NCBI RefSeq assembly: GCF_001426585.1 | Contig: NZ_LMEI01000006.1 | Location: 424,956 to 488,955, forward strand | From: Streptomyces sp. Root431 | GTDB taxonomy: Bacteria; Actinomycetota; Actinomycetes; Streptomycetales; Streptomycetaceae | Length of the DNA: 64,000 nucleotides | Direction: 5' to 3' | Shown: in pieces, positions 31,762 to 58,513 of the stretch | Numbering within the stretch: position 1 is the first letter of the stretch | Layout: each line of letters begins with the position of its first letter | Position numbers and translations under genes: made by a program | The notes under the pieces: model-generated | The model's input: only the letters and a program-made list of their open reading frames with translations | Told to the model about the DNA's origin: nothing | Databases searched by the model: none

Positions 31762-32640
31762 TCAGGCCCACTTCTGAGGCGTCGTCCCGTCGCACGGCAG
31801 CACCCGCAGACCGCCCGCGCTGTCGGCCAGGCAGCGCCGGGCCGTCGTGCTCCTGATCTCGACGGCCACGTCGTCCCGCGCGGTGACGGTCCACCGCTGC
31901 GACGCGGACGCGCCGCAGGCCGTCGTGGCCAGGCCGCCGGGCAGGTGGTCCAGACACTCTCCCGTCGCGTGGTTGCGGAGCTGGGTGCCGCCGTCCGCCG
32001 TCGTGCGCATGGTCCAGCGCTGGTACGACATGCCGTTGCACGCGAAGGACCTGGTGCCCTGGTCGAGACTGTCGTCGAGGCAGGCGCCCGTCGCCCGGCT
32101 CACGAAGATCCGGGGGACGTCCGACGCGGCGGACGCTCCCTGCGCGCCCACCGGGGCGGAGCCGCCGGGTGTCGGGGCCTGCGGCCGGAGGAGTACGGCG
32201 CTGACGGCTCCGAGTACCAGGCCGATCACGGCCCCGGCGACGGCCCACGCCACGTGCTTCCTCCGCGGGGAGAGACGGCGCCGAGCCGTCTCGGGCGGGG
32301 CGTCGTCCGACGGACCGTCACCGTCCTCCGCGCCGGAGGTCGCCTCCGTACCGGCGTCCCCGGCCGGCTGACGGCGGACCGGTTTGCGCTGGCTGTGGTC
32401 GGCGGCCTCCCACAGATGCCGGTACTCGGAGGGGTCACCGCCGAGGGCCTTGCACAGGTCGCGCACCGTCGACCACGGAGGGACGGTGCTGCCGAGGAAG
32501 TACCGGGACAGCGACGAGTCGCTGATGCGGACGGTCGTCTCCAGGTCCCGCAGCGTGCGCCCGGAGCGTCGCTGGAGGTCGCGCAGCGCCCTCCCCAGCG
32601 CACGGGCCGGTTCCTGGTCGTCCGGCCGTTCGGCAGCCAT
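31762..32640 (-). CDS. Membrane XRE-type HTH protein with extracellular ricin domain
   Basis: 292 residues in three parts. First, an N-terminal XRE helix-turn-helix (about 10-75: LGRALRDLQRRSGRTLRDLE, then SDSSLSRYFLGSTVP). Second, one membrane segment (about 130-155), preceded by RRRLSPRRKH, which puts the HTH inside the cell. Third, a C-terminal trefoil with three QxW repeats (QRW, QRW, QKW) and paired Cys, i.e. a ricin B-type lectin outside. This could couple sugar binding outside to DNA binding inside. Start ATG 32640 is chosen because the HTH domain begins right there; the longer frame upstream has no domain. Confidence 0.82.
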   Translation of the reverse strand: MAAERPDDQEPARALGRALRDLQRRSGRTLRDLETTVRISDSSLSRYFLGSTVPPWSTVRDLCKALGGDPSEYRHLWEAADHSQRKPVRRQPAGDAGTEATSGAEDGDGPSDDAPPETARRRLSPRRKHVAWAVAGAVIGLVLGAVSAVLLRPQAPTPGGSAPVGAQGASAASDVPRIFVSRATGACLDDSLDQGTRSFACNGMSYQRWTMRTTADGGTQLRNHATGECLDHLPGGLATTACGASASQRWTVTARDDVAVEIRSTTARRCLADSAGGLRVLPCDGTTPQKWA

Positions 32641-32760: not shown

Positions 32761-33011
32761 CGCGCCGCCGACACCCCGGACCGGGCGCGGGACACCACCC
32801 GCTGGGCCGACGACCACGGCATCCGCCATCTCGACGGTGCCGTCATGACGCCCACCCCGACCATCGGCACGCCGCATGCAGTGTTCCTGCACAGCGGCCC
32901 GGAGGAGCTCTACGCCGAACACCGGCCGAGGGGCTCACGCGCCGCACGATCGGCCTGGGGCACGGCGCCGAGGGGTTCACCCGGATCGCCGAAGTCCTCA
33001 CCCGCCGCTGA
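32761..33011 (+). pseudogene. Decayed imine-reductase/NAD(P)-dehydrogenase remnant
   Basis: In one frame, 32761 to about 32925 reads a segment with HGIRHLDGAV, TIGTPHAVFLHSGPEELYAEHR, the mid-region of NAD(P)-dependent imine-reductase-like proteins. In another frame, the sequence up to the stop at 33011 reads RRTIGLGHGAEGFTRIAEVLTRR, the family's usual C-terminus. The nucleotide-binding N-terminus and most of the catalytic helical domain are missing, and a stop precedes the first piece. This is a deleted, frameshifted remnant with no promoter of its own. Its end overlaps the stop region of the minus-strand MarR-fusion gene by 14 bases. Confidence 0.72.
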
Positions 33012-34107
33012 GAGTTCGGCGATCGGCGGTTGGGGCCGGGGCCGGGGTCGGGGCTGGGGCCGGGGTCGGGGTGGGGGTCGGGGCCGAAGCCTGGACCGCC
33101 GGGCCGAAGCATTCCTCCGGGGCGGTCTCCCGGCCTTCCTCCGTCCGGACGCGGAGCAGCGCGAGGGCGCGGTTGCGGCCCGTGTGGGCGGCGGGTCCCG
33201 TGACGATGACGACGCCTTCGTCCTCGGTGTGGAGGACCAGGCCGGGCGTCCCGGCGTAGGTACGGCGGGTGACCGTGGCCGCGAGGATCTCCAGGCGTCG
33301 GCCGTTGTGGTGGGTGTAGGCGGTCGGGTAGGCGTTCCGCCGGGCGTCGACGAACCGGACGAGGGACTCCGCGGGGAGGGACCAGTCGATCCGGCCGTTC
33401 TCGGCGGAGTGGCTCTGCACGGGGGCGTCGGCACCCGGCCCGCGGTGACGCGCGCTGCTCGGTGATTCGTGCACGACGGCGGCCGGTGCCGGTTCGAGGT
33501 GCCGGTGCACGCGGCGTAACAGGGAGCCCAGTTGGTCGCGTTCCGCCGGGCTGAGCGGGGCGAGGATGTCGTCGTCCGCCGACGCGATGTCCGTGTTGAG
33601 CTCGGCCAGTGCGGTCCTGCCCTCGTCGGTCAGCCGGACGACGACGCGGCGGCGGTCGGAGAGGTCGCGGACGCAGTCCACGTGCCCGGCCCTGTCCAGG
33701 TCGTTGACGATCTTCACGAGGTCGCTGGCGTTCATGTCGAGCCGCGCGGCCAGGGCCGTCTTCATCTGCGGTCCGAGGTCACCGAGCAGTGCCATGACGG
33801 TGAGGTGCCACAACCGGAGCCCCCGGGCGGCCAGTCGGTCGGTCAGCCGCCGCCGCGCGGACTTGCCGATGGCGGTGAGGAGGTAGGCGTGGAGGTCGAG
33901 GACGCTCGGTGGTGTCATGCGCGTCGCGGCGCCGGCGGTGGGCGGCGCGGCCGCGGTCTCGGCCGGCGGTGCGCCGAGTGTCAGGTCGGTGCCGGCGAGC
34001 GCGGTGAGGACCCGTGCCCAGTCGGTCGGCGCGTTCGAGAGGCCGACGAAGGCGAACCGCTCGCCTTCCGGGCCGTGTGCCGTCCCTGAGACCACCGGCT
34101 GTTCCAT
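32998..34107 (-). CDS. MarR-type regulator fused to formyltransferase C-terminal domain
   Basis: 369 residues. Residues 1-50 are a short unassigned region. Residues 70-210 form a MarR winged helix: LRLWHLTVMALLGDLGPQMKTALA, then DLVKIVNDLDRAG, and the wing DLSDRRRVVVRLTDEG. Residues 238-345 closely match the C-terminal domain of the formyltransferase encoded at 35016: GRIDWSLPAESL against IRIDWSWPAEVL, GRRLEILAATV against GRRLEILSAVV, and TGRNRALALLRVRTEEGRE against TGRNHGLAITRVRTDDGRE. A Pro/Thr/Ala tail ends it. The catalytic formyltransferase domain is absent. An iron box lies 10 bases upstream, so it is iron-repressed. A ligand-sensing regulator of the siderophore cluster is the best inference. 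Confidence 0.87.
   Translation of the reverse strand: MEQPVVSGTAHGPEGERFAFVGLSNAPTDWARVLTALAGTDLTLGAPPAETAAAPPTAGAATRMTPPSVLDLHAYLLTAIGKSARRRLTDRLAARGLRLWHLTVMALLGDLGPQMKTALAARLDMNASDLVKIVNDLDRAGHVDCVRDLSDRRRVVVRLTDEGRTALAELNTDIASADDDILAPLSPAERDQLGSLLRRVHRHLEPAPAAVVHESPSSARHRGPGADAPVQSHSAENGRIDWSLPAESLVRFVDARRNAYPTAYTHHNGRRLEILAATVTRRTYAGTPGLVLHTEDEGVVIVTGPAAHTGRNRALALLRVRTEEGRETAPEECFGPAVQASAPTPTPTPAPAPTPAPAPTADRRTLSGG
33032..33083 (+). repeat. Nine-run G-tract repeat (G-quadruplex capable)
   Basis: Nine runs of four or five G are separated by one or two bases (CC, TC, CT or T), mostly with a six-base period. It lies in the 3' end of the minus-strand MarR-fusion gene and encodes its Pro-Thr/Pro-Ala tail. 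Such a run can form stacked G-quadruplexes on the plus strand and is prone to length changes. Confidence 0.85.
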
Positions 34108-34116
34108 GACTCATCC

Positions 34117-34135
34117 TTAGGTGAGGCTAACCTAA
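34117..34135. promoter_or_regulatory. Iron box (DmdR1/IdeR) before the MarR-fusion gene
   Basis: TTAGGTGAGGCTAACCTAA matches the actinobacterial iron-box consensus TTAGGTTAGGCTAACCTAA at 18 of 19 positions. It lies 10 bases before the MarR-fusion start and just after the stop of the DDAH-like gene. Confidence 0.92.
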
Positions 34136-34181: not shown

Positions 34182-34997
34182 TTATGCGGTGGCCGTGCGC
34201 AGCTCCAGCGTGCAGCACTTGACGCTGCCGCCGGCCTTGAGGAGTTCCGAGAGGTCCACGCCGATGGGGTGGAAGCCCCGGGCGCGCAACTGCTCGGTCA
34301 GGCCTGTGGCGTTGTGCGGCAGGACCACGTTGTATCCGTCCGAGGTCGCGTTGAGTCCGAAGACCGCCGCGTCCTCGGCCGTGGCGATGACGGCGTCGGG
34401 GAACAGGCGCCGCAGCACCGCGAGGCTGCCCGGCGAGAAGGCCGCCGGGTAGTACGCGATCGTCCGCTCGTCGAGCACCGTGAGCGCGGTGTCGAGGTGG
34501 TAGTAGTCCGGGTCCACGAGCGTCAGTCCGATGACGGGGCGGCCGAAGAACTCCTGCGCCTCGTCGTGCGAGCGCGGATCGCTGCGGAAGCCCGTACCGG
34601 CGAGCAGCCAGTCGCCGGCCAACAGGTAGTCGCCCTCGCCCTCGTTGACGACGCCGGCGGTGCGGAGGTCGGGGAAGCCGTTGTCCCGCAGCCAGTCGTG
34701 GTAGGCGGGGCCCTCCGCGATGCGCTCGGCGTCGCGGAACCTCGCGACGAGCGCCCGGCCGTCGATCACCGTCGCGCCGTTGGCGGCGAAGACCATGTCG
34801 GGGAGGCCGGGGACGGGGTCGATCGTGTCGACGGTGTGCCCGAGGCTCAGGTAGACCTCGCGCAGCTTCTCCCACTGGGTGATGGCCAGTCGGGTGTCGA
34901 CGGGCTTCGCGGGGTCCATCCAGGGGTTGATGGAGTAGACCACGTCGAAGTGGGTGGGCCGGCACATGAGGTAGTGCCGAGGCCGTGCGGTACGCAT
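34182..34997 (-). CDS. Dimethylarginine dimethylaminohydrolase-like enzyme
   Basis: 271 residues of the pentein amidinotransferase/hydrolase fold. The catalytic His is in YHLDTALTVLDE, the acidic substrate residues in PDMVFAANGATVIDG, and the nucleophilic Cys near the C-terminus in KCCTLEL. Family members hydrolyse (methyl)arginine to citrulline. Inside a siderophore operon it could feed the ornithine/citrulline pool or modify an arginine-derived intermediate; this is inference. It starts 18 bases after the formyltransferase stop and is probably co-transcribed from the iron box at 36001. Confidence 0.85.
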   Translation of the reverse strand: MRTARPRHYLMCRPTHFDVVYSINPWMDPAKPVDTRLAITQWEKLREVYLSLGHTVDTIDPVPGLPDMVFAANGATVIDGRALVARFRDAERIAEGPAYHDWLRDNGFPDLRTAGVVNEGEGDYLLAGDWLLAGTGFRSDPRSHDEAQEFFGRPVIGLTLVDPDYYHLDTALTVLDERTIAYYPAAFSPGSLAVLRRLFPDAVIATAEDAAVFGLNATSDGYNVVLPHNATGLTEQLRARGFHPIGVDLSELLKAGGSVKCCTLELRTATA

Positions 34998-35015: not shown

Positions 35016-35963
35016 TCAGGGGCGGCTGGTGAGGTAGCCGCCCATGGAAGTGAAGTACTCGGCGGCGGCCAGTTCGCGGCCGTCGTCCGTCCGTACGCGG
35101 GTGATGGCGAGGCCGTGGTTGCGGCCGGTGCGCGCGTCGGCTCCGGCGACGATGACGACGCCGTCGCCCTCGCGGTAGAAGATCCGGCCGGGAGTGCCGC
35201 CGTAACGGCCCGTGGAGACCACGGCGGAGAGGATCTCCAGGCGCCTTCCGCGGTGGAAGGCGAAGGCGGCCGGATACGGGTCGGACTGGGCGCGGACCAG
35301 GCGCTCCAGGACCTCGGCGGGCCAGCTCCAGTCGATCCGGATGTCCTCCTCGGCCCGCTTGTGGAAGAAGCTGGCCTGCGACCTGTCCTGCTGGGTGAAC
35401 TCGGTCTCACCGGAGGCGATCAGGCCGAGCGCGCCGATCGTGACCGGGGCGATGAGGTCGACGGTCTTGTGGAACAGGTCCGTCGCCGTGTCGGTCGGCT
35501 CCACGGCGACCGACTCCTGCCGGACGATGTCGCCGGCGTCGAGCACCTCGTCCATCATGTGGGCCGTGACGCCCACTTCGGGCTCGCCGTTGATCAGCGC
35601 CCAGATCAGGGGCGAGAAGCCGGCGTACTTCGGCAGCAGCGAGTCGTGGACGTTCAGCGTGCCGTGGCGCGGCAGGTTGTAGATCCGCGGCGGGATCCAC
35701 GTACGCCAGTTGTTGGCCACGATGATGTCCGGATCGGCCTCCTTGAGCCGCTCGAACAACTCCTCGTCGTCCGGCCGGTTGCGGATGACGACGGGGACGC
35801 CGTGCTCCGCCGCCAGGTCCGCGACCGAGTCGCTCCAGATCTTCTCGTACGCGTGCTCGCTCTTGGGGTGCGTCACGACCAACACCACGTCGTGCTCGGA
35901 GTCCAGGAGCGCTTGGAGGGTGCGATGGCCCCAGGTCTGATAACCGAACATGACGACCCGCAT
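35016..35963 (-). CDS. N5-hydroxyornithine formyltransferase
   Basis: 315 residues. The N-terminal 200 form a formyltetrahydrofolate-dependent transferase domain with NVHDSLLPKYAGFSPL, where Asn and His are catalytic, and DEVLDAGDI. The C-terminal domain is shared with the MarR fusion. It is similar to the coelichelin-type hydroxyornithine formyltransferase, so the product is probably N5-formyl-N5-hydroxyornithine for the NRPS. ATG at 35963 follows GGAGGAAG. It is first in a two-gene iron-regulated operon, divergent from the N-monooxygenase gene. Confidence 0.9.
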   Translation of the reverse strand: MRVVMFGYQTWGHRTLQALLDSEHDVVLVVTHPKSEHAYEKIWSDSVADLAAEHGVPVVIRNRPDDEELFERLKEADPDIIVANNWRTWIPPRIYNLPRHGTLNVHDSLLPKYAGFSPLIWALINGEPEVGVTAHMMDEVLDAGDIVRQESVAVEPTDTATDLFHKTVDLIAPVTIGALGLIASGETEFTQQDRSQASFFHKRAEEDIRIDWSWPAEVLERLVRAQSDPYPAAFAFHRGRRLEILSAVVSTGRYGGTPGRIFYREGDGVVIVAGADARTGRNHGLAITRVRTDDGRELAAAEYFTSMGGYLTSRP

Positions 35964-36000: not shown

Positions 36001-36019
36001 TAAAGCAAGGCTTACCTAA
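36001..36019. promoter_or_regulatory. Iron box for the formyltransferase operon
   Basis: On the minus strand it reads TTAGGTAAGCCTTGCTTTA, a partly degenerate iron box 37 bases before the formyltransferase start. Confidence 0.75.
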
Positions 36020-36104: not shown

Positions 36105-36123
36105 TCAGGTTAGCTTTACCTAA
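36105..36123. promoter_or_regulatory. Iron box for the N-monooxygenase operon
   Basis: TCAGGTTAGCTTTACCTAA keeps both outer half-sites of the iron-box consensus. It lies 87 bases before the ornithine monooxygenase start. With the box at 36001 it makes the divergent region doubly iron-controlled. Confidence 0.8.
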
Positions 36124-36210
36124 GTTCCGCTCGGGTCGCCCTCTCCGGTGTGCCCCGATGCCCTGTTCCCTGCCACGCCCCCCACAGGCGGCACGCACGA
36201 TGGGAGTGAC

Positions 36211-37572
36211 ATGTCTCAGGTTCTTCCTGGTGACACACCTCTGGTCCACGACCTCATTGGAATCGGCTTCGGGCCGTCCAACGTGGCCATGGCGTTGGCG
36301 CTCAGCGAGCACAACGCACGCGTCGGCAGGGAGGAGGCGGTGACCGCGCACTTCTTCGAGCGGCAGCCGTGCTTCGGCTGGCACCGCGGCATGCTGATCG
36401 ACGACGCGACCATGCAGGTGTCCTTCCTCAAGGACCTGGTGACGCTGCGGAATCCGTCCAGCGAGTACAGCTTCCTCTGCTACCTGCAGAGCAAGGGACG
36501 GCTGATCGACTTCGTCAACCACAAGAACCTCTTCCCGCTGCGCGTGGAGTTCCACGACTACTTCGAGTGGGCGGCGGCGAAGGTCGACGACATGGTCTCG
36601 TACGGCCACGAGATCATCGCGGTCGAACCGGTCGTCCAGGACGGCGTGGTGGAGTACCTGGAGGTCACCGCCCGCGCCGGCACGGAGCTCGTCGTCCACC
36701 GCGCCCGCAACCTGGTCCTCGGCACCGGACTGCGCCCCCGCATGCCCGAGGGCATCGAGCGCAGCGACCGGGTCTGGCACAACTCCGACCTGCTGGCCAA
36801 GGTGGACGGCCTGGAGGGCACCGCCCCCGAACGGTTCGTCGTCGTCGGCGCCGGACAGAGCGCCGCGGAGAACGTGGCCTACCTGCACCGCCGCTTCCCG
36901 GACGCCGAGATCTGCGCCGTCTTCTCCCGCTACGGCTACAGCCCGGCCGACGACAGCGCCTTCGCCAACCGCATCTTCGACCCCGAAGCGGTCGACGAGT
37001 ACTTCACCGCTCCTGACGACATCAAGCGCAAGCTGATGGAGTACCACGGCAACACCAACTACTCCGTGGTGGACATCGACCTCATCGACGACCTGTACCG
37101 GCAGTCGTACCAGGAGAAGGTCCTCGGCACCGAGCGGCTGCGCTTCCTCAACATCTCGCGGCTCGTCGGCGTCGAGCACGGCCCCGACGGGGCCCGCGCC
37201 ACCGTCAGGTCCCTGGTCAGCGGCGAGGAGACCACTCTCGACGCCGACGTGGTCGTGCTCGCCACCGGCTACAGCCCCGCCGACCCGATCGGCCTCCTCG
37301 GCGACGTCGCCGAGCGCTGCCTCCGCGACGACCAGGGCCGCATCCGCGTCGAGCGCGACTACCGCGTCGCCACCGACCCCGAACTGCGCTGCGGCATCTA
37401 CCTCCAGGGCGGGACGGAGCACACCCACGGCATCACGTCGTCGCTGCTCTCCAACACCGCGATCAGGGTGGGGGAGATCCTCGACTCGGTCGTCGGCCGG
37501 CTCGCGGCCGCCGCCGTCCCGGCCGCCCGGCAGGACCGGCCGGTCGTCGACGGCGTCGGCACGGCCCGCTGA
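36211..37572 (+). CDS. L-ornithine N5-monooxygenase
   Basis: 453 residues of the FAD- and NADPH-dependent N-hydroxylating family. The FAD motif is GIGFGPSNVAMALAL near residue 17, the substrate/flavin region FLKDLVTLRNPSS, the NADPH motif GAGQSAAENVAYL, and the C-terminal ATGYSP motif is intact. It makes N5-hydroxyornithine, the precursor of the hydroxamates. ATG at 36211 follows GGGAGTG and is preferred over the longer upstream frame. It opens the operon that leads into the NRPS. Confidence 0.94.
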   Translation: MSQVLPGDTPLVHDLIGIGFGPSNVAMALALSEHNARVGREEAVTAHFFERQPCFGWHRGMLIDDATMQVSFLKDLVTLRNPSSEYSFLCYLQSKGRLIDFVNHKNLFPLRVEFHDYFEWAAAKVDDMVSYGHEIIAVEPVVQDGVVEYLEVTARAGTELVVHRARNLVLGTGLRPRMPEGIERSDRVWHNSDLLAKVDGLEGTAPERFVVVGAGQSAAENVAYLHRRFPDAEICAVFSRYGYSPADDSAFANRIFDPEAVDEYFTAPDDIKRKLMEYHGNTNYSVVDIDLIDDLYRQSYQEKVLGTERLRFLNISRLVGVEHGPDGARATVRSLVSGEETTLDADVVVLATGYSPADPIGLLGDVAERCLRDDQGRIRVERDYRVATDPELRCGIYLQGGTEHTHGITSSLLSNTAIRVGEILDSVVGRLAAAAVPAARQDRPVVDGVGTAR

Positions 37573-37667: not shown

Positions 37668-37705
37668 CACGGCACGCACTGTGAATCCCCGTGAAAGGAA
37701 AGTCT

Positions 37706-38767
37706 GTGTCAACTGGTGCACGTCCCGCGCTCGCGCGGTTCGCCGGATCCGCTCCCCGCGTGGCCGTCGTCGCGGTGGCGGCGCTCGCCCTCGCCGCCTG
37801 CGGGGGCGGGACGGAGAAGTCCGGCTCGTCCTCCTCGCCCTCCGTGTCGGCGCCGGCCGACGGAGCGGGCAAGCCCGGTGCGTTCCCGGTCACGGTCGCG
37901 CACAAGTACGGCAGCACCACGATCGACAAGGAGCCGAAGACGATCGTCACGCTCGGTCTCTCCGACCAGGACGCGGTGCTCGCGCTCGGCGTCAAGCCGG
38001 CCGGCTCCGTCGACTGGTTCAAGGAGCAGCCGTACGGCAAGTGGCCGTGGACCAAGGACAAGTGGGGCTCCACGAAGCCGGTCATCGTCGGCGAGCGCGA
38101 CGAGTACAACATCGAGAAGATCGCGGAGCTCAAGCCGGACCTGGTCATCGCCCAGTACTCGGGGATGAAGAAGGAGCAGTACGACACGCTCTCCAAGTTC
38201 ACCAAGGTCGTCGCCCAGCCCAAGGAGCACCCCGACTACGGGGCGCCGTGGCAGGTCATGACCCGGCAGATCGGCAAGGCGCTCGGCAAGGACGCCGAGA
38301 CCGAGAAGCTGATCGCGGACATCGACACCCGCTTCAAGGCCGTCCGCGACAAGCACCCCGAGTTCGCGCAGAAGACGCTGGCCGTCGCCGACTCCTTCGA
38401 GGCCGGGAAGTACTCGGCGTTCACCAGGACCGACCCCAAGTCGATCTTCTTCTCCGGACTCGGCTTCAAGCTGAAGCCGGAGATCGACGGCCTGGCCAAG
38501 CCGGGCTGGAACGTCGCCGAACTCAGCGCCGAGAAGCTGAACGTCCTCGACGTCGACCGGCTGGTCTGGGTCACCTCCAGCACCGAGGCCAACGACCGGA
38601 TCAAGGCGGAGCCGCTCTACAAGAAGCTGAAGGTCAACCAGGGGAAGCGCGACCTGTTCGTGCCCTACCAGGACCCGGACATCGGCGCCGCGTTCTCCTT
38701 CAACACCGTCCTGTCGATCCCGTACGCCATCGACGAGATCGAGCCGCTCCTCGCGGCCGTCAAGTGA
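37706..38767 (+). CDS. Ferric-siderophore substrate-binding lipoprotein
   Basis: 353 residues from GTG 37706, with AAGGAA five bases upstream; an in-frame GTG at 37691 is the alternative. The lipobox LALAACGGG anchors it outside. The body matches FecB/FepB-like binding proteins (GLSDQDAVLALGVKPAG, LKPDLVIAQYSGM). It would capture the ferric siderophore and pass it to the FecCD permeases at 57452. Confidence 0.92.
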   Translation: MSTGARPALARFAGSAPRVAVVAVAALALAACGGGTEKSGSSSSPSVSAPADGAGKPGAFPVTVAHKYGSTTIDKEPKTIVTLGLSDQDAVLALGVKPAGSVDWFKEQPYGKWPWTKDKWGSTKPVIVGERDEYNIEKIAELKPDLVIAQYSGMKKEQYDTLSKFTKVVAQPKEHPDYGAPWQVMTRQIGKALGKDAETEKLIADIDTRFKAVRDKHPEFAQKTLAVADSFEAGKYSAFTRTDPKSIFFSGLGFKLKPEIDGLAKPGWNVAELSAEKLNVLDVDRLVWVTSSTEANDRIKAEPLYKKLKVNQGKRDLFVPYQDPDIGAAFSFNTVLSIPYAIDEIEPLLAAVK

Positions 38768-38895: not shown

Positions 38896-53366
<14,471 letters not shown>

Positions 53367-53370
<4 letters not shown>

Positions 53371-53691: not shown

Positions 53692-55591
53692 CGTCGGAGT
53701 CGGCGTCGGAGGTGGCGGCCGGCTTCGGCACGCTCCCGCTCCCCTTCTCCCCGGGCTGCCGCCGGCTGTCGGACCACGCCGCCCAGAGGTCGGCGTACCG
53801 GCCGCCCGCGGCGATCAGCTCCTCGTGGGTGCCGTTCTCCACGACCCGGCCCCCGTCCAGGACGACGACGCGGTCGGCGGTCGCGGCCTGCGGCAGACGG
53901 TGGGCCACCATCAGCCCCGTACGGCCCTCAAGGGCCCGCGCCGCCGCCTCCTCCAGGACGCGCGCGCCCGCGCTGCCCGCGTCGGCCGTCGCCTCGTCGA
54001 GGATGGCGACGGGCGGATCGGCGAGGACGAGCCGGGCCAGCGCGAGGTGCTGCGCCTGCGTCACCGTCAGCCGGTGGCCGCCCTCGCCGACGACCGTGGC
54101 GAGCCCCTCGGGAAGCGCCTCCGCCCACGCCAGGGCGCCCACCCGGTCCAGGGCCGCGCGCAGTTCCTCGTCACCGGCGTCGGGCCGGGCGAGACGCAGG
54201 TCCTCGGCGAGCGGACCGGCGAAGACGTGCACTTCCTGGCTGATGAGGGCCACCGCGCGCCGGACCCCGGCCGGGCCCAGCTTCGCGACCGGGACGCCGC
54301 CGAGGGTGATCGAGCCCGACGTCGGCTCGTGGACCCCGGCGATGACCTTGGCGAGGGTCGTCTTGCCCGCCCCGCTCGCGCCGACCAGGGCCACCCGCTC
54401 CCCGCTGCGTACGGTGAGGTCGACCTCGTGCAGCACGGGAGCCCCCGTGCCGTACGCGTGGCTGAGCCCCGACACCGTGACCGAGCCGTCCACGGGAGCG
54501 TCCGCGCCCTGCGGCGCGGGCTCGGCCGGGAGGGCCGAGACCCCCACCAGGCGGGCGAAGCTCGCGCCCGCGGACTGCGCGTCGTCCAGGAGGTACAGCG
54601 TCGCGTTGATCGGGTTGAAGAGGCTGTGGAAGTACAGCGCGGCGGCCGTGGCCGTACCGATGCTGACCGAACCGCCGTCGACCAGGACGAATCCGGTGGC
54701 GAGCATCGCGGCCAGGCCGATGAACTCGGCGAGGTTCAGCCGGGAGAAGAAGCCGCTGACGAGGTGGATGCCCCGCAGGCCGAGGTCGCGCGCCGCCGCC
54801 GACCGCTCCTCCAGGAGACCGGAGTGCGTCCCGCCGAGGCGGAAGGCGCGGACGGTCCGCGCGCCGCCGACGCTGTCGAGCAGCTGGTGCTGCAAGGCGC
54901 CGGTGGCGATGCGGTGCTCGCCGTACACGGGGGAGGAGCGGCGCATGTACCAGCGGACGGAGAAGACCTGGACCGGCGCGGCGAGGAGCGCGGCGAGCAG
55001 GAACCGCCAGTCGAGGACGGCGAGTCCGACGAAGGTGAGCACGATCGTGAGCGCGGAGCGGCTGAACTCGGGCAGCGCCTGCCGCACCGACTTCGCGATC
55101 ATGGACACGTCGCTCGTCACCCGGGAGACGAGGTCGCCGGAGCCGGCCGCCTCGACGCGCTCCAGCGGCAGCCGCAGCGCCCGCTCGATGAACTGCTCGC
55201 GCAGCGCGGCGAGCACGGTCTCGCCGAGCCGGGCGACGAGCGTGCTGCCGACGGCCGCCGCCGCGCCGCGGGCCACGGCGACGGCGATGAGCAGGACGAG
55301 CGGCAGCGTCAGGGCCTGGGGCCCGCGCTGCTCCACGACCAGGTCGACGATGTGCCCGAGGAGGGGCGCGGTGAGCAGGCCGATCGCGGTTCCGGCGACC
55401 AGGACGGTCATCGCGCCCACGGCCAGGAGCCGGTGGCCGTGGAGCATCGTGCGGAGCGCCGCCCTGCACGCGGCGCCCGAGGCGGTCGGCAGGAGCGCGC
55501 GGTCGGGGCTGCTTGCGGTCATGGTCTGTTCCGTCTCCTCGGGCGGTGTCGTACGCGGTGCCTCGTCGGTCGTCATGGCGGCGTCCGTCAT
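53669..55591 (-). CDS. ABC exporter half-transporter, second subunit
   Basis: 640 residues: six membrane segments (about 45-330) and a nucleotide-binding domain. Walker A (GASGAGKTT, near 402) and Walker B (VAILDEAT, near 528) are canonical, but the signature motif is degenerate: LTVTQAQ in place of LSGGQ. ATG at 55591 overlaps the stop of the upstream subunit. The reading frame runs on through that neighbour but encodes nothing there. With its partner it forms a heterodimer that probably exports the siderophore. Confidence 0.92.
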   Translation of the reverse strand: MTDAAMTTDEAPRTTPPEETEQTMTASSPDRALLPTASGAACRAALRTMLHGHRLLAVGAMTVLVAGTAIGLLTAPLLGHIVDLVVEQRGPQALTLPLVLLIAVAVARGAAAAVGSTLVARLGETVLAALREQFIERALRLPLERVEAAGSGDLVSRVTSDVSMIAKSVRQALPEFSRSALTIVLTFVGLAVLDWRFLLAALLAAPVQVFSVRWYMRRSSPVYGEHRIATGALQHQLLDSVGGARTVRAFRLGGTHSGLLEERSAAARDLGLRGIHLVSGFFSRLNLAEFIGLAAMLATGFVLVDGGSVSIGTATAAALYFHSLFNPINATLYLLDDAQSAGASFARLVGVSALPAEPAPQGADAPVDGSVTVSGLSHAYGTGAPVLHEVDLTVRSGERVALVGASGAGKTTLAKVIAGVHEPTSGSITLGGVPVAKLGPAGVRRAVALISQEVHVFAGPLAEDLRLARPDAGDEELRAALDRVGALAWAEALPEGLATVVGEGGHRLTVTQAQHLALARLVLADPPVAILDEATADAGSAGARVLEEAAARALEGRTGLMVAHRLPQAATADRVVVLDGGRVVENGTHEELIAAGGRYADLWAAWSDSRRQPGEKGSGSVPKPAATSDADSDVPVSPAH

Positions 55592-57285
55592 GCCAGCACC
55601 GTCGCGCGGTACGTCTCGTCGGCGGCGAGGAGGTCGTTGTGGTGGCCGGCGGCCCGTACCGCGCCGTCCTCCAGGACCACCACCCGGTCGGTCACCGCGA
55701 GGAGCGCGGGGCTGGTGGTGACGAGGACGGTCGTACGGCCCCGGCGGACCTCCCGCAGCCGGCTCGCGATCCGCGACTCGGTGACGGTGTCGACGGCGGT
55801 GGTCGGATCGTGCAGCACGAGCACGGGCCGGTCGGCGGCGAGCGCCCGGGCCAGCGCCACGCGCTGGCGCTGGCCGCCGGAGAGCGACCGGCCGCGCTCG
55901 GCGAGGAGGGTGTCCACGCCGTCCGGGAGGAGCTGGGCCACGTCGTCGGCGGCCGAGGCCCCTAGGGCGCGGTCGACCGCCGCCGTGTCGCCGTCGGCCG
56001 CGGCCCGTACGTTGTCGATGAGGGTGCTCTCGAACAGGTCCGCGTCGTGGTGGGCGACGAGGACGGCCCGGCGCAGCGCGTCGGGGTCGAGCCCGGTGAG
56101 GGGCACGCCGTCGAGCTCGATCGTGCCCTCGGCGGGGTCCTTCTCGCGGGCCAGGCAGAGCAGCAGGTCGGCGGCGGCCGCCGGGTCCCGGGCGACGATG
56201 CCGGTCAGGCCGCCGGCGGGCAGGTCGAGGTCCACGCCCCGGAGGGCGCCGAGCGACACCCCGCGCAGGGCGAGGTGACCGGCGGCCGGGTCGGCCGGGA
56301 CCGCCTGCCCGCCCTCGACGGCGGCGGGCTCGGCGAGCACCTCGGCGATCCGCCGTGCCGAGGCCCGGCCCTGGGCGAGTTCGGCGTTGACGTAGGTGAG
56401 CAGCTGGAACGGCCCGAGGAGGAACTGCGCCAGGCCCACGGCCGCCACCAGGTCGCCGACGCTGATGCTGCCGTCCATGGCGAGGTAGGCGCCCACCAGA
56501 CCGATCACGGCGATGAAGACGCCGGTCAGGGCGAGGACCGCGCCCTCGTGCCCGGCCCGGCTGCGGGCCGCGCGCAGGGCGGCGGCCAGCGAGTCCTGGC
56601 TCGTGGTGCGGTAGCGGGCGACGGCCGCCGACTCGGCGCCCATGCCCTTGAGGACGCGCAGACCGGAGACGAGGTCGGCGGCGACGCCCGAGGCGTGGGC
56701 GGCGCGCTCCTGCTCGGTCTCGCTGCGCCGTTCCAGGGGCCGGCTGATGCGGTGTCCGAGCCAGAGCAGCGGCGGGATGCCGAGCAGGACGAGGAGGCCC
56801 AGCGGGACGGAGATCCGCAGGAGCGCCACGGCGCTGATCGCGAGGGCCGCGACCGCCGACACCCCGTACGCGATGATGGTCGCCACCGAGCCCACCCGGC
56901 GGGCGTCGTTGGTGGCGATGCTCGTCAGGGCGCCGGGGAGCCGGTTCGTCTCGGCGCCGCCCCGGGGGTCGAGGACGCGCGCGGCCAGCTCCATGCGGAG
57001 CCGGTGCGCGGCGTGCTCGCCCGCGCCCTCGGTGATCCGTGCGCTCGTGCGGTAGCAGGTGGAGAGCACGAGGAAGAGGACGGCGAGGACGACCAGCCAG
57101 CGCAGCAGGGCGTCGGAGGAGCCGGTCGCCACCGCTGTGTCGATGATGACGCCGATGACCACCGGGATCAGGGCCTCGCACCCTTGGTGGGTCATGCCGA
57201 GCAGGGACGCCGCGATGATGCGGGGACGCTGCCCTCTGATCGCTCGACCGAGGACAAGTGCCCCTGTCGGTCCGCCCGTTGGCAT
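55588..57285 (-). CDS. ABC exporter half-transporter, first subunit
   Basis: 565 residues with six membrane segments and a nucleotide-binding domain. The signature LSGGQRQRVALARAL (near 468) is intact, but the Walker A equivalent reads VARDPAAAADLLL near 360, without the GKS/GKT core, and Walker B reads VLVLHDPTT without the catalytic Glu. It therefore cannot hydrolyse ATP alone; the partner's intact Walker motifs complete one site with this signature. ATG at 57285 follows GGAGGAG. Iron boxes lie 31 and 79 bases upstream. Confidence 0.92.
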   Translation of the reverse strand: MPTGGPTGALVLGRAIRGQRPRIIAASLLGMTHQGCEALIPVVIGVIIDTAVATGSSDALLRWLVVLAVLFLVLSTCYRTSARITEGAGEHAAHRLRMELAARVLDPRGGAETNRLPGALTSIATNDARRVGSVATIIAYGVSAVAALAISAVALLRISVPLGLLVLLGIPPLLWLGHRISRPLERRSETEQERAAHASGVAADLVSGLRVLKGMGAESAAVARYRTTSQDSLAAALRAARSRAGHEGAVLALTGVFIAVIGLVGAYLAMDGSISVGDLVAAVGLAQFLLGPFQLLTYVNAELAQGRASARRIAEVLAEPAAVEGGQAVPADPAAGHLALRGVSLGALRGVDLDLPAGGLTGIVARDPAAAADLLLCLAREKDPAEGTIELDGVPLTGLDPDALRRAVLVAHHDADLFESTLIDNVRAAADGDTAAVDRALGASAADDVAQLLPDGVDTLLAERGRSLSGGQRQRVALARALAADRPVLVLHDPTTAVDTVTESRIASRLREVRRGRTTVLVTTSPALLAVTDRVVVLEDGAVRAAGHHNDLLAADETYRATVLA

Positions 57286-57315: not shown

Positions 57316-57334
57316 TTAGGTAAGCCTACTCTGA
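57316..57334. promoter_or_regulatory. Iron box for the exporter operon
   Basis: TTAGGTAAGCCTACTCTGA keeps a good left half-site and a weak right one. It lies 31 bases before the exporter start and faces the minus strand. Confidence 0.65.
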
Positions 57335-57363
57335 CCTTGCGGCGCGTTGACCGGTCGATTGCG

Positions 57364-57382
57364 TTCGGTTAGCCTCACCTAA
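57364..57382. promoter_or_regulatory. Iron box for the importer operon
   Basis: TTCGGTTAGCCTCACCTAA keeps most of the iron-box consensus. It lies 70 bases before the FecCD permease start. Together with 57316 it makes the divergent region iron-controlled in both directions. Confidence 0.82.
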
Positions 57383-57451: not shown

Positions 57452-58513
57452 TTGTCCGTCCAGTCCCGCGAACAGGTCGGGAAGGCCGTCGACGCCGCAC
57501 CCCCCTCGGGCCGCACCGGGGCGACGCTCCGGAGCCTCGGCCTGCTGCTCGGCGTCGCGGCCCTCGTCCTCGTCTCCCTCCTCAGCGTCTGGGTCGGCAC
57601 CCGGGGCATCCCCTTCACCGCCACCTGGCACGTGCTGTGGAACCCCGACGGGTCGGAGACGTCGGTCATCATCCATGACTACCGCATCCCCAGGACCCTC
57701 CTCGGGATGCTGGTCGGCACGGCGCTCGGCCTCGCCGGCGCCCTGATGCAGGCACTGACCCGCAATCCGCTCGCCGACCCCGGCATGCTCGGCGTCAACC
57801 TCGGGGCCTCCGCGGGCGTCGTGGTGGCCATCGCCTTCTTCGGCGTCGCGGCGCCCCTCGGCTACGTGTGGTTCGCCCTCGCCGGCGCCGCCGCCGCGTC
57901 CGCCGGGGTCTACCTCCTCGGCTCCTCCGGCCGGAAGCTCGCCTCGCCCGAGCGGCTCGTCGTCGCCGGCGCCGCCGTCACCGCCGTGCTGTACGCCTTC
58001 AACTGGGCGATCCTCATCCTCGCCCCCAAGGCCTTCGACCAGTTCCGCTTCTGGACCGTCGGCTCCCTCGCCGGCCGCTACTACGACGTCGTCCTCATGG
58101 CGCTGCCCTTCATCGCGGTCGGCCTCGTCGTCGCCCTCTTCCTCGCGCCCTCGCTCAACGCCCTCGCCATGGGCGACCAGATGGGGCGGGCCCTCGGCGT
58201 GAACGTCGGCAGGACCCGCGCCCTCGGCGCCGTCGCCGTCATGCTCCTGTGCGGCGCCGCGACCGCAGCCGCCGGACCGATCGGCTTCGTGGGGCTCGCC
58301 GTCCCGCACGTCGCCCGGTTCGTCGTCGGCCCCGACCAGCGGTGGGTGTTCGCGTACTCGATGCTCATCGCCCCCGTCCTCCTCATCGGCTCGGACGTCA
58401 TCGGCCGGATCCTCGGCGCCCCCGGCGAGGTGCAGGTCGGCATCGTCACCGCCTTCATCGGAGCGCCCCTCTTCATCGCCCTCTGCCGCCGCCGAAAGCT
58501 GGTCATGCTGTGA
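57452..58513 (+). CDS. Ferric-siderophore ABC permease (FecCD), first
   Basis: 353 residues, about ten membrane helices. The FecCD motifs RIPRTLLGMLVGTALGLAGA and TRNPLADPGMLG are clear. A TTG start at 57452 is supported by GGGGAG six bases upstream. It overlaps the next permease by four bases. Confidence 0.93.
   Translation: MSVQSREQVGKAVDAAPPSGRTGATLRSLGLLLGVAALVLVSLLSVWVGTRGIPFTATWHVLWNPDGSETSVIIHDYRIPRTLLGMLVGTALGLAGALMQALTRNPLADPGMLGVNLGASAGVVVAIAFFGVAAPLGYVWFALAGAAAASAGVYLLGSSGRKLASPERLVVAGAAVTAVLYAFNWAILILAPKAFDQFRFWTVGSLAGRYYDVVLMALPFIAVGLVVALFLAPSLNALAMGDQMGRALGVNVGRTRALGAVAVMLLCGAATAAAGPIGFVGLAVPHVARFVVGPDQRWVFAYSMLIAPVLLIGSDVIGRILGAPGEVQVGIVTAFIGAPLFIALCRRRKLVML

What the first reader, a model, noticed from the sequence alone, without database searches (positions are those of the whole stretch)
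32998..34107. MarR regulator fused to the C-terminal domain of a siderophore formyltransferase
The last 110 or so residues of this regulator (before its Pro/Thr tail) are a clear paralogue of the C-terminal domain of the formyltransferase encoded 0.9 kb away, without the catalytic domain. The fusion is iron-boxed and sits in the same cluster. This looks like an enzyme domain recruited as a sensor, so the regulator could respond to a pathway intermediate (hydroxyornithine, its formyl form, or the siderophore) as well as iron status. I know of no described regulator of this architecture.
Basis: partly seen in the sequence, partly recalled or inferred. Interest (0 to 1): 0.85.

Follow-up and report, generated by a model that had tools for sequence, protein, structure and literature searches.

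The report
Siderophore regulator patched from enzyme parts
In a Streptomyces genome, a DNA-binding-type regulator inside a predicted siderophore (iron-scavenging) gene cluster carries a copy of the tail domain of a nearby formyltransferase enzyme and, at its front, a short stretch related to aspartokinase; it is likely switched on by iron shortage, and because relatives differ in whether they carry the enzyme tail, that tail is probably an optional accessory and not the regulator's main sensor.

Summary
Window 32998-34107 (-) encodes a 369-residue MarR-type regulator whose residues 235-331 are a Formyl_trans_C domain, 56% identical to that of the formyltransferase 0.9 kb away, behind a near-perfect iron box. 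It is no assembly chimera: 36 of 97 database relatives carry the fusion. But 59 of 97 lack it, in the same cluster position where checked. All fused domains lie on one side of one branch from the enzymes, so one old fusion followed by about 10-13 losses fits best; S. gardneri keeps a deletion scar. The fused domain is under purifying selection (codon-model omega 0.18, four sequences), yet 21 of 64 positions near-fixed in close enzymes have changed in most fusions. New here: the N-terminal 45 residues derive from an aspartokinase ACT domain, beginning at the enzyme's internal beta-subunit start. The cluster's NRPS reads like a foroxymithine synthetase. Best reading: an iron-gated local MarR-type regulator built by capture of two enzyme fragments, of which the formyltransferase domain is optional and fold-constrained. 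The open-licence papers searched listed no description of this architecture.

The parts
32998..34107 (-). Chimeric regulator gene, 369 aa: ACT fragment + MarR core + Formyl_trans_C + Pro/Thr/Ala tail
   Evidence: 36 of 97 relatives fused
33973..34107 (-). Residues 1-45: fragment of an aspartokinase ACT domain, starting at the position of the enzyme's internal beta-subunit start
   Evidence: profile hits only itself and aspartokinase in the own genome (79% complete), E 1.3e-7; PDB aspartokinases to E 2.4e-8; shuffle control; omega 0.33
33484..33915 (-). Residues 65-208: MarR-type winged-helix core
33412..33483 (-). Residues 209-232: disordered linker
   Evidence: pLDDT under 50 for 207-223; pairwise dN/dS 1.09, 0.76 and 0.40 against L001, L002 and L003
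33100..33411 (-). Residues 233-336: formyltransferase C-terminal domain without its catalytic domain
   Evidence: PF02911 E 1.1e-12; 56% id to the formyltransferase; pLDDT block means 89-97 over 241-330; omega 0.18
34117..34135 (.). Iron box (DmdR1/DtxR type) just upstream of the regulator's ribosome site
34182..34997 (-). Dimethylargininase-like gene between formyltransferase and regulator
   Evidence: NCBIfam DiMArgaseDdahMtb 453 bits, cut-off 300
35016..35963 (-). Formyltransferase (Formyl_trans_N + Formyl_trans_C), of the family from which the fused domain came
36001..36019 (.). Iron-box-like element on the formyltransferase side of the divergent promoter, aligned in the window and 13 related loci
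36105..36123 (.). Iron box on the monooxygenase side of the divergent promoter, aligned in the window and 13 related loci
36148..37572 (+). Ornithine/lysine N-monooxygenase gene (start uncertain)
   Evidence: PF13434 E 4e-106
37691..38767 (+). Iron-siderophore binding lipoprotein-like gene
   Evidence: PF01497 E 7.8e-25
38896..53370 (+). NRPS, 4824 aa, with four adenylation domains and a last condensation-type motif; foroxymithine-like order

Best explanation
Window 32998-34107 encodes one 369-residue protein in which a MarR-type winged-helix core is joined, at its C-terminus, to the C-terminal domain of a formyltransferase like the one encoded nearby and, at its N-terminus, to a stretch of 45 residues related to an aspartokinase ACT domain, and which likely works as an iron-gated local regulator of its predicted siderophore cluster. 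Shown: the architecture, its patchy presence in relatives, purifying selection on all three pieces, the iron-box sequence, the cluster's gene content. Inferred: one fusion and repeated loss; when iron is short, DmdR1 leaves the iron box and the regulator is made; a MarR-type dimer then binds a dyad in the cluster and tunes its expression. The formyltransferase domain would be an optional appendage on a flexible linker, held to its fold because an unfolded tail would harm the regulator, with at most a tuning role; the effector would act on the MarR core or on the ACT fragment that nearly all relatives share.
For: Domains and paralogy. Fused in 36 of 97 relatives, absent in 59, 2 set aside; in 13 of 14 loci the formyltransferase is the next gene or one gene away (L010 is cut by its contig end). 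All 37 fused domains lie on one side of a branch (98, quick tree, few columns) from 41 enzyme copies. The fused state changes 10 times on one MarR tree and 12 on another, 6 and 7 of them forced by starred branches; 13 losses if gained once. Deletion scar in S. gardneri (L004, P0022, P0027); P0045 seems to keep its sisters' last residues. Codon-model omega: FTC 0.18 (4 sequences), ACT fragment 0.33 and MarR 0.11 (13 each); omega 1 is worse by 34, 19 and 216 log units. Of 64 FTC positions at least 95% fixed in 121 close enzymes, 22 are kept in at least 85% of 37 fused copies, 21 in under half. Model: MarR and FTC confident, linker disordered. ACT fragment. Iron box.
Against: No DNA-binding, ligand or expression data. 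Purifying selection and four fusion-specific conserved residues (S234, R256, H266, R270) could mean a real, unknown function of the domain. FTC omega rests on 4 sequences, and simple pairwise counts are higher: 0.31, 0.58 and 0.62 against L001, L002 and L003, where the linker gives 1.09, 0.76 and 0.40, so the linker is not always freer. The 121 enzymes are all close (the listed ones 86-91% identical to the query), so 'fixed' is partly closeness; the bias of kept positions to nonpolar/Gly/Pro has only p 0.06. Pfam's own MarR models score below their cut-offs (17.2 and 19.4 bits against 24.6 and 27). No conserved dyad stood out upstream of the NRPS or binding-protein genes. The outgroup root falls beside a single fused row, probably by long branches, so gain and loss counts are unsure. 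Which protein binds the iron boxes was not tested.
Confidence: 0.5

Rival explanations
1. Recruited sensor: the fused formyltransferase domain binds hydroxyornithine, its formyl form or the finished siderophore and so reports pathway flux to the MarR core.
For: Domain comes from the pathway's own enzyme family, is kept folded under selection (omega 0.18) and has fusion-specific residues including H266 and R270 in a THH.GRR stretch; net charge differs, median -4 in 37 fused against +1 in 120 enzyme copies, medians taken by hand.
Against: 59 of 97 relatives lack it, 13 losses if gained once; in this enzyme family the folate and amine sites lie in the missing N-terminal domain (recalled); W214, F262, Y263, R264 and R278 of the enzyme are kept in at most 8% of fused copies, the 276-282 loop in 5-59%.
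Confidence: 0.22
2. Docking module: the domain (and perhaps the ACT fragment) lets the regulator stick to enzyme partners, the formyltransferase or aspartokinase, coupling enzyme abundance to transcription.
For: Both appendages come from enzymes; the ACT fragment has its own conserved motif, D29 and W30 in 15 of 15 aligned rows, though P0081 and P0087 have Arg for W30; both are tethered by disordered linkers.
Against: No interface evidence; the stretch SFFHKR that precedes the enzyme's domain is not kept; the formyltransferase domain is optional.
Confidence: 0.17
3. Extra nucleic-acid grip: the domain, an OB-like fold that in methionyl-tRNA formyltransferase touches tRNA (recalled), adds nonspecific DNA contacts.
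For: Foldseek match of the model to E. coli Fmt, prob 1.00, rmsd 2.8 over 111 columns.
Against: Fused domains are more acidic than the enzyme's.
Confidence: 0.06
4. Assembly or annotation artefact.
For: None found; G000 is a 13-contig draft, 79% complete.
Against: Independent genomes carry the same joint: L001-L003 and 36 of 97 proteins.
Confidence: 0.01

Closest known systems
MarR-family transcriptional regulators
   Different: Carries two enzyme-derived appendages; plain relatives P0218 and P0219 on Streptomycetaceae plasmids show neither
Fmt-like formyltransferases (Formyl_trans_N + Formyl_trans_C), here window 35016-35963, presumed hydroxyornithine formyltransferase
   Same: Shares the C-terminal domain, 56% identity
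   Different: No catalytic domain; many positions fixed in close enzymes changed
Aspartokinase regulatory (beta) subunit, first ACT domain
   Same: First 44-45 residues align without gaps and begin at the residue where the solved C. glutamicum beta-subunit chain begins
   Different: Only the first part of one ACT domain; PGEAA of the enzyme reads PTDWA here
Foroxymithine cluster of Streptomyces venezuelae (RS35125-35150, tentative match in PMC9769785, passages read)
   Same: Predicted same product order; S. venezuelae has an unfused relative P0091
   Different: I could not place P0091 in that cluster; the passages read do not mention this regulator

Membership tests
MarR family | Winged-helix domain of MarR type | tested here: met
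   HTH_27 above cut-off, MarR and MarR_2 below theirs; structure match; profile
MarR family | Dimer that binds a palindromic operator | not testable with these tools
   Candidate dyads only
MarR family | Effector-dependent release from DNA | not testable with these tools
   No ligand known
Formyl_trans_C (PF02911) | Profile match over curated cut-off, predicted folded domain | tested here: met
   48.5 bits vs 21.1; pLDDT block means 89-97 over 241-330
Hydroxyornithine formyltransferase | Catalytic Formyl_trans_N domain | tested here: not met
   No PF00551 listed for the protein
ACT domain of aspartokinase | Sequence relation to aspartokinase ACT1 | tested here: met
ACT domain of aspartokinase | Complete beta-alpha-beta-beta-alpha-beta domain | tested here: not met
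   Only about 45 residues; model shows two strands and one helix at pLDDT 65-75; no Pfam match of the piece
DmdR1/DtxR iron regulon | 19-base iron box in the promoter | tested here: met
   1 mismatch in the window, 0 in L012; binding not tested
Foroxymithine-type cluster | NRPS of order fhOrn-Ser-hOrn-fhOrn with formyltransferase and Orn monooxygenase | tested here: inconclusive
   Codes read by eye against recalled codes; modules 1 and 4 share a code that I could not assign

The most novel reading that the evidence does not exclude
A transcription factor that reads two metabolic states through captured enzyme fragments: an aspartokinase ACT piece for amino-acid supply (or for docking to aspartokinase) and a formyltransferase domain for siderophore assembly, bolted on either side of a MarR core; a tractable case of regulators evolving by swallowing parts of the enzymes around them.
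Probability: 0.2. Interest if true: 0.88.

Novelty: new variant of a known kind. Interest (0 to 1): 0.62.

Why it matters
It is a regulator assembled from pieces of two enzymes, with fused and secondarily reduced forms alive in present-day Streptomyces. That makes the question whether captured enzyme domains become sensors directly testable, by comparing fused and naturally unfused relatives from the same kind of cluster. If the sensor reading holds, it gives a pathway-specific control point for a siderophore class.

Tried and rejected
Assembly chimera: rejected, the joint recurs in independent genomes. N-terminal extension from the formyltransferase's own start: rejected, hhalign probability 0.7%. 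DNA-grip role by a basic surface: disfavoured by net charge. Metal site from the extra histidines: not pursued; H266 is replaced in 2 of 37 and H267 in 1. Pfam on two N-terminal pieces: no match at E 10; a single-sequence PDB search gave only E 0.07, so the aspartokinase link rests on family profiles. The last protein search, region 1-46 of P0011, scored 15 candidates and listed 12 family members, no aspartokinase; few candidates shared words. Viral contigs: none. Plasmids: 55 records, none covering 80% of the query; 2 of the 15 listed were read. Promoters of NRPS and binding-protein genes: no clear operator. Regulator promoters: 12 of 14 reach a dyad of 6 or 7 pairs against 406 of 1400 shuffles, so enriched together but not exceptional one by one, and the best dyad of L006 is not iron-box-like. 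Papers: one search listed 9 (listings only); searches listed none; some searches served foroxymithine, DmdR1 and aspartokinase background; passages of PMC10464499 were seen and not used. In the structure second look the list was filled by MarR chains, so the other parts were barely tested there.

Dropped rows: P0094 and P0097 from counts and trees; also P0030 and P0031 from the N-terminal profile; L014, whose regulator frame is broken, from codon tests; L010, cut by its contig end. One search scored only the 7997 candidates sharing most words; one search listed 120 of 2440; of these every third (40) plus the window went into, all 120 plus the window into.

Full report

Surroundings. The gene lies behind a dimethylargininase-like gene and the formyltransferase, divergent from an ornithine monooxygenase, a siderophore-binding-protein gene and an NRPS with four adenylation domains. 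Reading the adenylation pockets by eye gives DVWIVGAVN, DVWHFSLVD, DMENLGLIN and DVFIVGAVN; by codes recalled from memory, module 2 is serine and module 3 hydroxyornithine, and modules 1 and 4 resemble each other. With a condensation-type motif after the last carrier domain this fits foroxymithine, whose composition I recall. Foroxymithine is matched tentatively to a cluster in S. venezuelae (PMC9769785, passages) and matters for its exploratory growth (PMC11005364, passages). An iron box stands before the regulator (34117-34135) and two more such elements in the divergent promoter; the latter two align in the window and 13 loci. In S. coelicolor such boxes link DmdR1 to siderophore clusters (PMC12161575, passages).

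How widespread. Of 97 relatives (capped candidates), 36 are fused and 59 not; 2 were set aside. Every name given is Streptomyces. Of 14 loci from named genomes, 3 are fused (L001-L003), 9 are not, L014 has a broken frame, and L010, cut by its contig end, shows no fused domain either; the formyltransferase is the next gene or one gene away in 13. Of 41 genomes of the genus, 4 match the N-terminal piece plus MarR core, and only the window's own match runs into the fused domain.

Origin. All 37 fused domains (36 plus the window) lie on one side of a branch (98 by a quick tree with few columns) from 41 formyltransferase domains, and broadly the same subclades appear in the MarR tree. On that tree the fused state changes 10 times, at least 6 forced; with an outgroup 12 and 7. 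If gained once, it was lost 13 times. S. gardneri still carries the last residues of the domain after an internal deletion, and P0045 seems to carry its sisters' tail. The root is unsure, so gain and loss are an inference.

Selection. Pairwise dN/dS of window against L001, L002 and L003 is 0.31, 0.58 and 0.62 for the fused domain; 1.09, 0.76 and 0.40 for the short linker; 0.16, 0.22 and 0.23 for the MarR core; 0.06, 0.27 and 0.20 for the enzyme's own C-terminal domain. So the domain is freer than core and enzyme, and the linker is not a consistent neutral control. A codon model gives 0.18 (four sequences), 0.33 for the N-terminal piece and 0.11 for the core (13 sequences each); omega 1 fits far worse. 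Of 64 positions at least 95% fixed in 121 close enzymes, 22 are kept in at least 85% of fused copies and 21 in under half; lost ones include W214, F262, Y263, R264 and R278, and fused copies have their own R256, H266, R270 and S234. The nonpolar bias of kept positions is only suggestive (p 0.06). I read this as a fold kept and an enzyme surface let go, with a hint of new surface; no coordinates were at hand to place these residues.

The second captured piece. Searching the family profile against solved structures returned aspartokinase regulatory subunits for profile positions 1-54. The piece alone, as a 15-sequence profile, finds aspartokinases at E 2.4e-8 to 3.7e-4 (7 of 8 rows) and then one unrelated row at 0.32. 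In six frames of the window's own genome (79% complete) it finds only itself and aspartokinase, E 1.3e-7. Aspartokinase scores E 1.2e-8 against 0.06 for the best of 2000 shuffles. Identity to the own aspartokinase runs from 4 to 21 of 46 residues among relatives, lowest in the S. goshikiensis-like group; the window shares 12 of 45, read. At the DNA level 73 of 135 bases agree and the 30 bases upstream do not (3 of 30). The first codon aligns with an internal GTG of the own aspartokinase gene that has AAGGAG upstream, and with the first residue of the solved C. glutamicum beta-subunit chain. A single-sequence search alone would have missed it (E 0.07). Of 97 relatives 91 carry the piece whole, 3 start inside it and 3 after it. 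D29 and W30 hold in 15 of 15 aligned rows, but P0081 and P0087 have Arg for W30. Being shared so widely it is likelier than the formyltransferase domain to matter for every member. It is part of an ACT domain only, so amino-acid binding cannot be assumed.

How it probably works. Iron shortage would relieve DmdR1 and the regulator would be made. As a MarR-type dimer it would bind a dyad, perhaps the one in its own promoter that varies around the iron box in relatives. Dyads of 6 or 7 pairs occur in 12 of 14 such promoters against 406 of 1400 shuffles, enriched together but not decisive, and they may be iron boxes only. The formyltransferase domain is optional. I rank it as a fold-constrained accessory first, a sensor second, a docking module third.

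Novelty. MarR regulators are known, and database records already carry both Pfam labels, but four paper searches listed no description (open-licence papers, listings only). Whether the aspartokinase relation of the N-terminus has been reported was covered only, which found no paper.

Noticed in passing
34182-34997: A dimethylargininase-like gene sits between formyltransferase and regulator in the window, L001 and L004, and was not matched in the other loci; it might supply citrulline or ornithine for the siderophore.
   Followed up: partly
31762-32640: An Xre-type HTH protein fused to a ricin-B-like lectin domain lies beside the regulator, also in L001 and L004.
   Followed up: no
57316-57382: Two iron-box-like elements (5 and 3 mismatches) in the gap between the frames 55588-57285 (-) and 57452-58513 (+).
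   Followed up: no
L014 10508-11102: The regulator frame is broken and the NRPS matches in pieces in the Streptomyces sp. WAC08241 record; may be sequencing quality. Left as it is.
   Followed up: no
L023 4501-5411 and L024 4261-5330: Plain MarR relatives without either appendage stand divergent to VOC/glyoxalase-family genes on large Streptomycetaceae plasmids.
   Followed up: partly
33028-33084: The Pro/Thr/Ala tail of the regulator (residues 342-360) varies in length among close relatives (369 aa here, 353 in P0001).
   Followed up: partly
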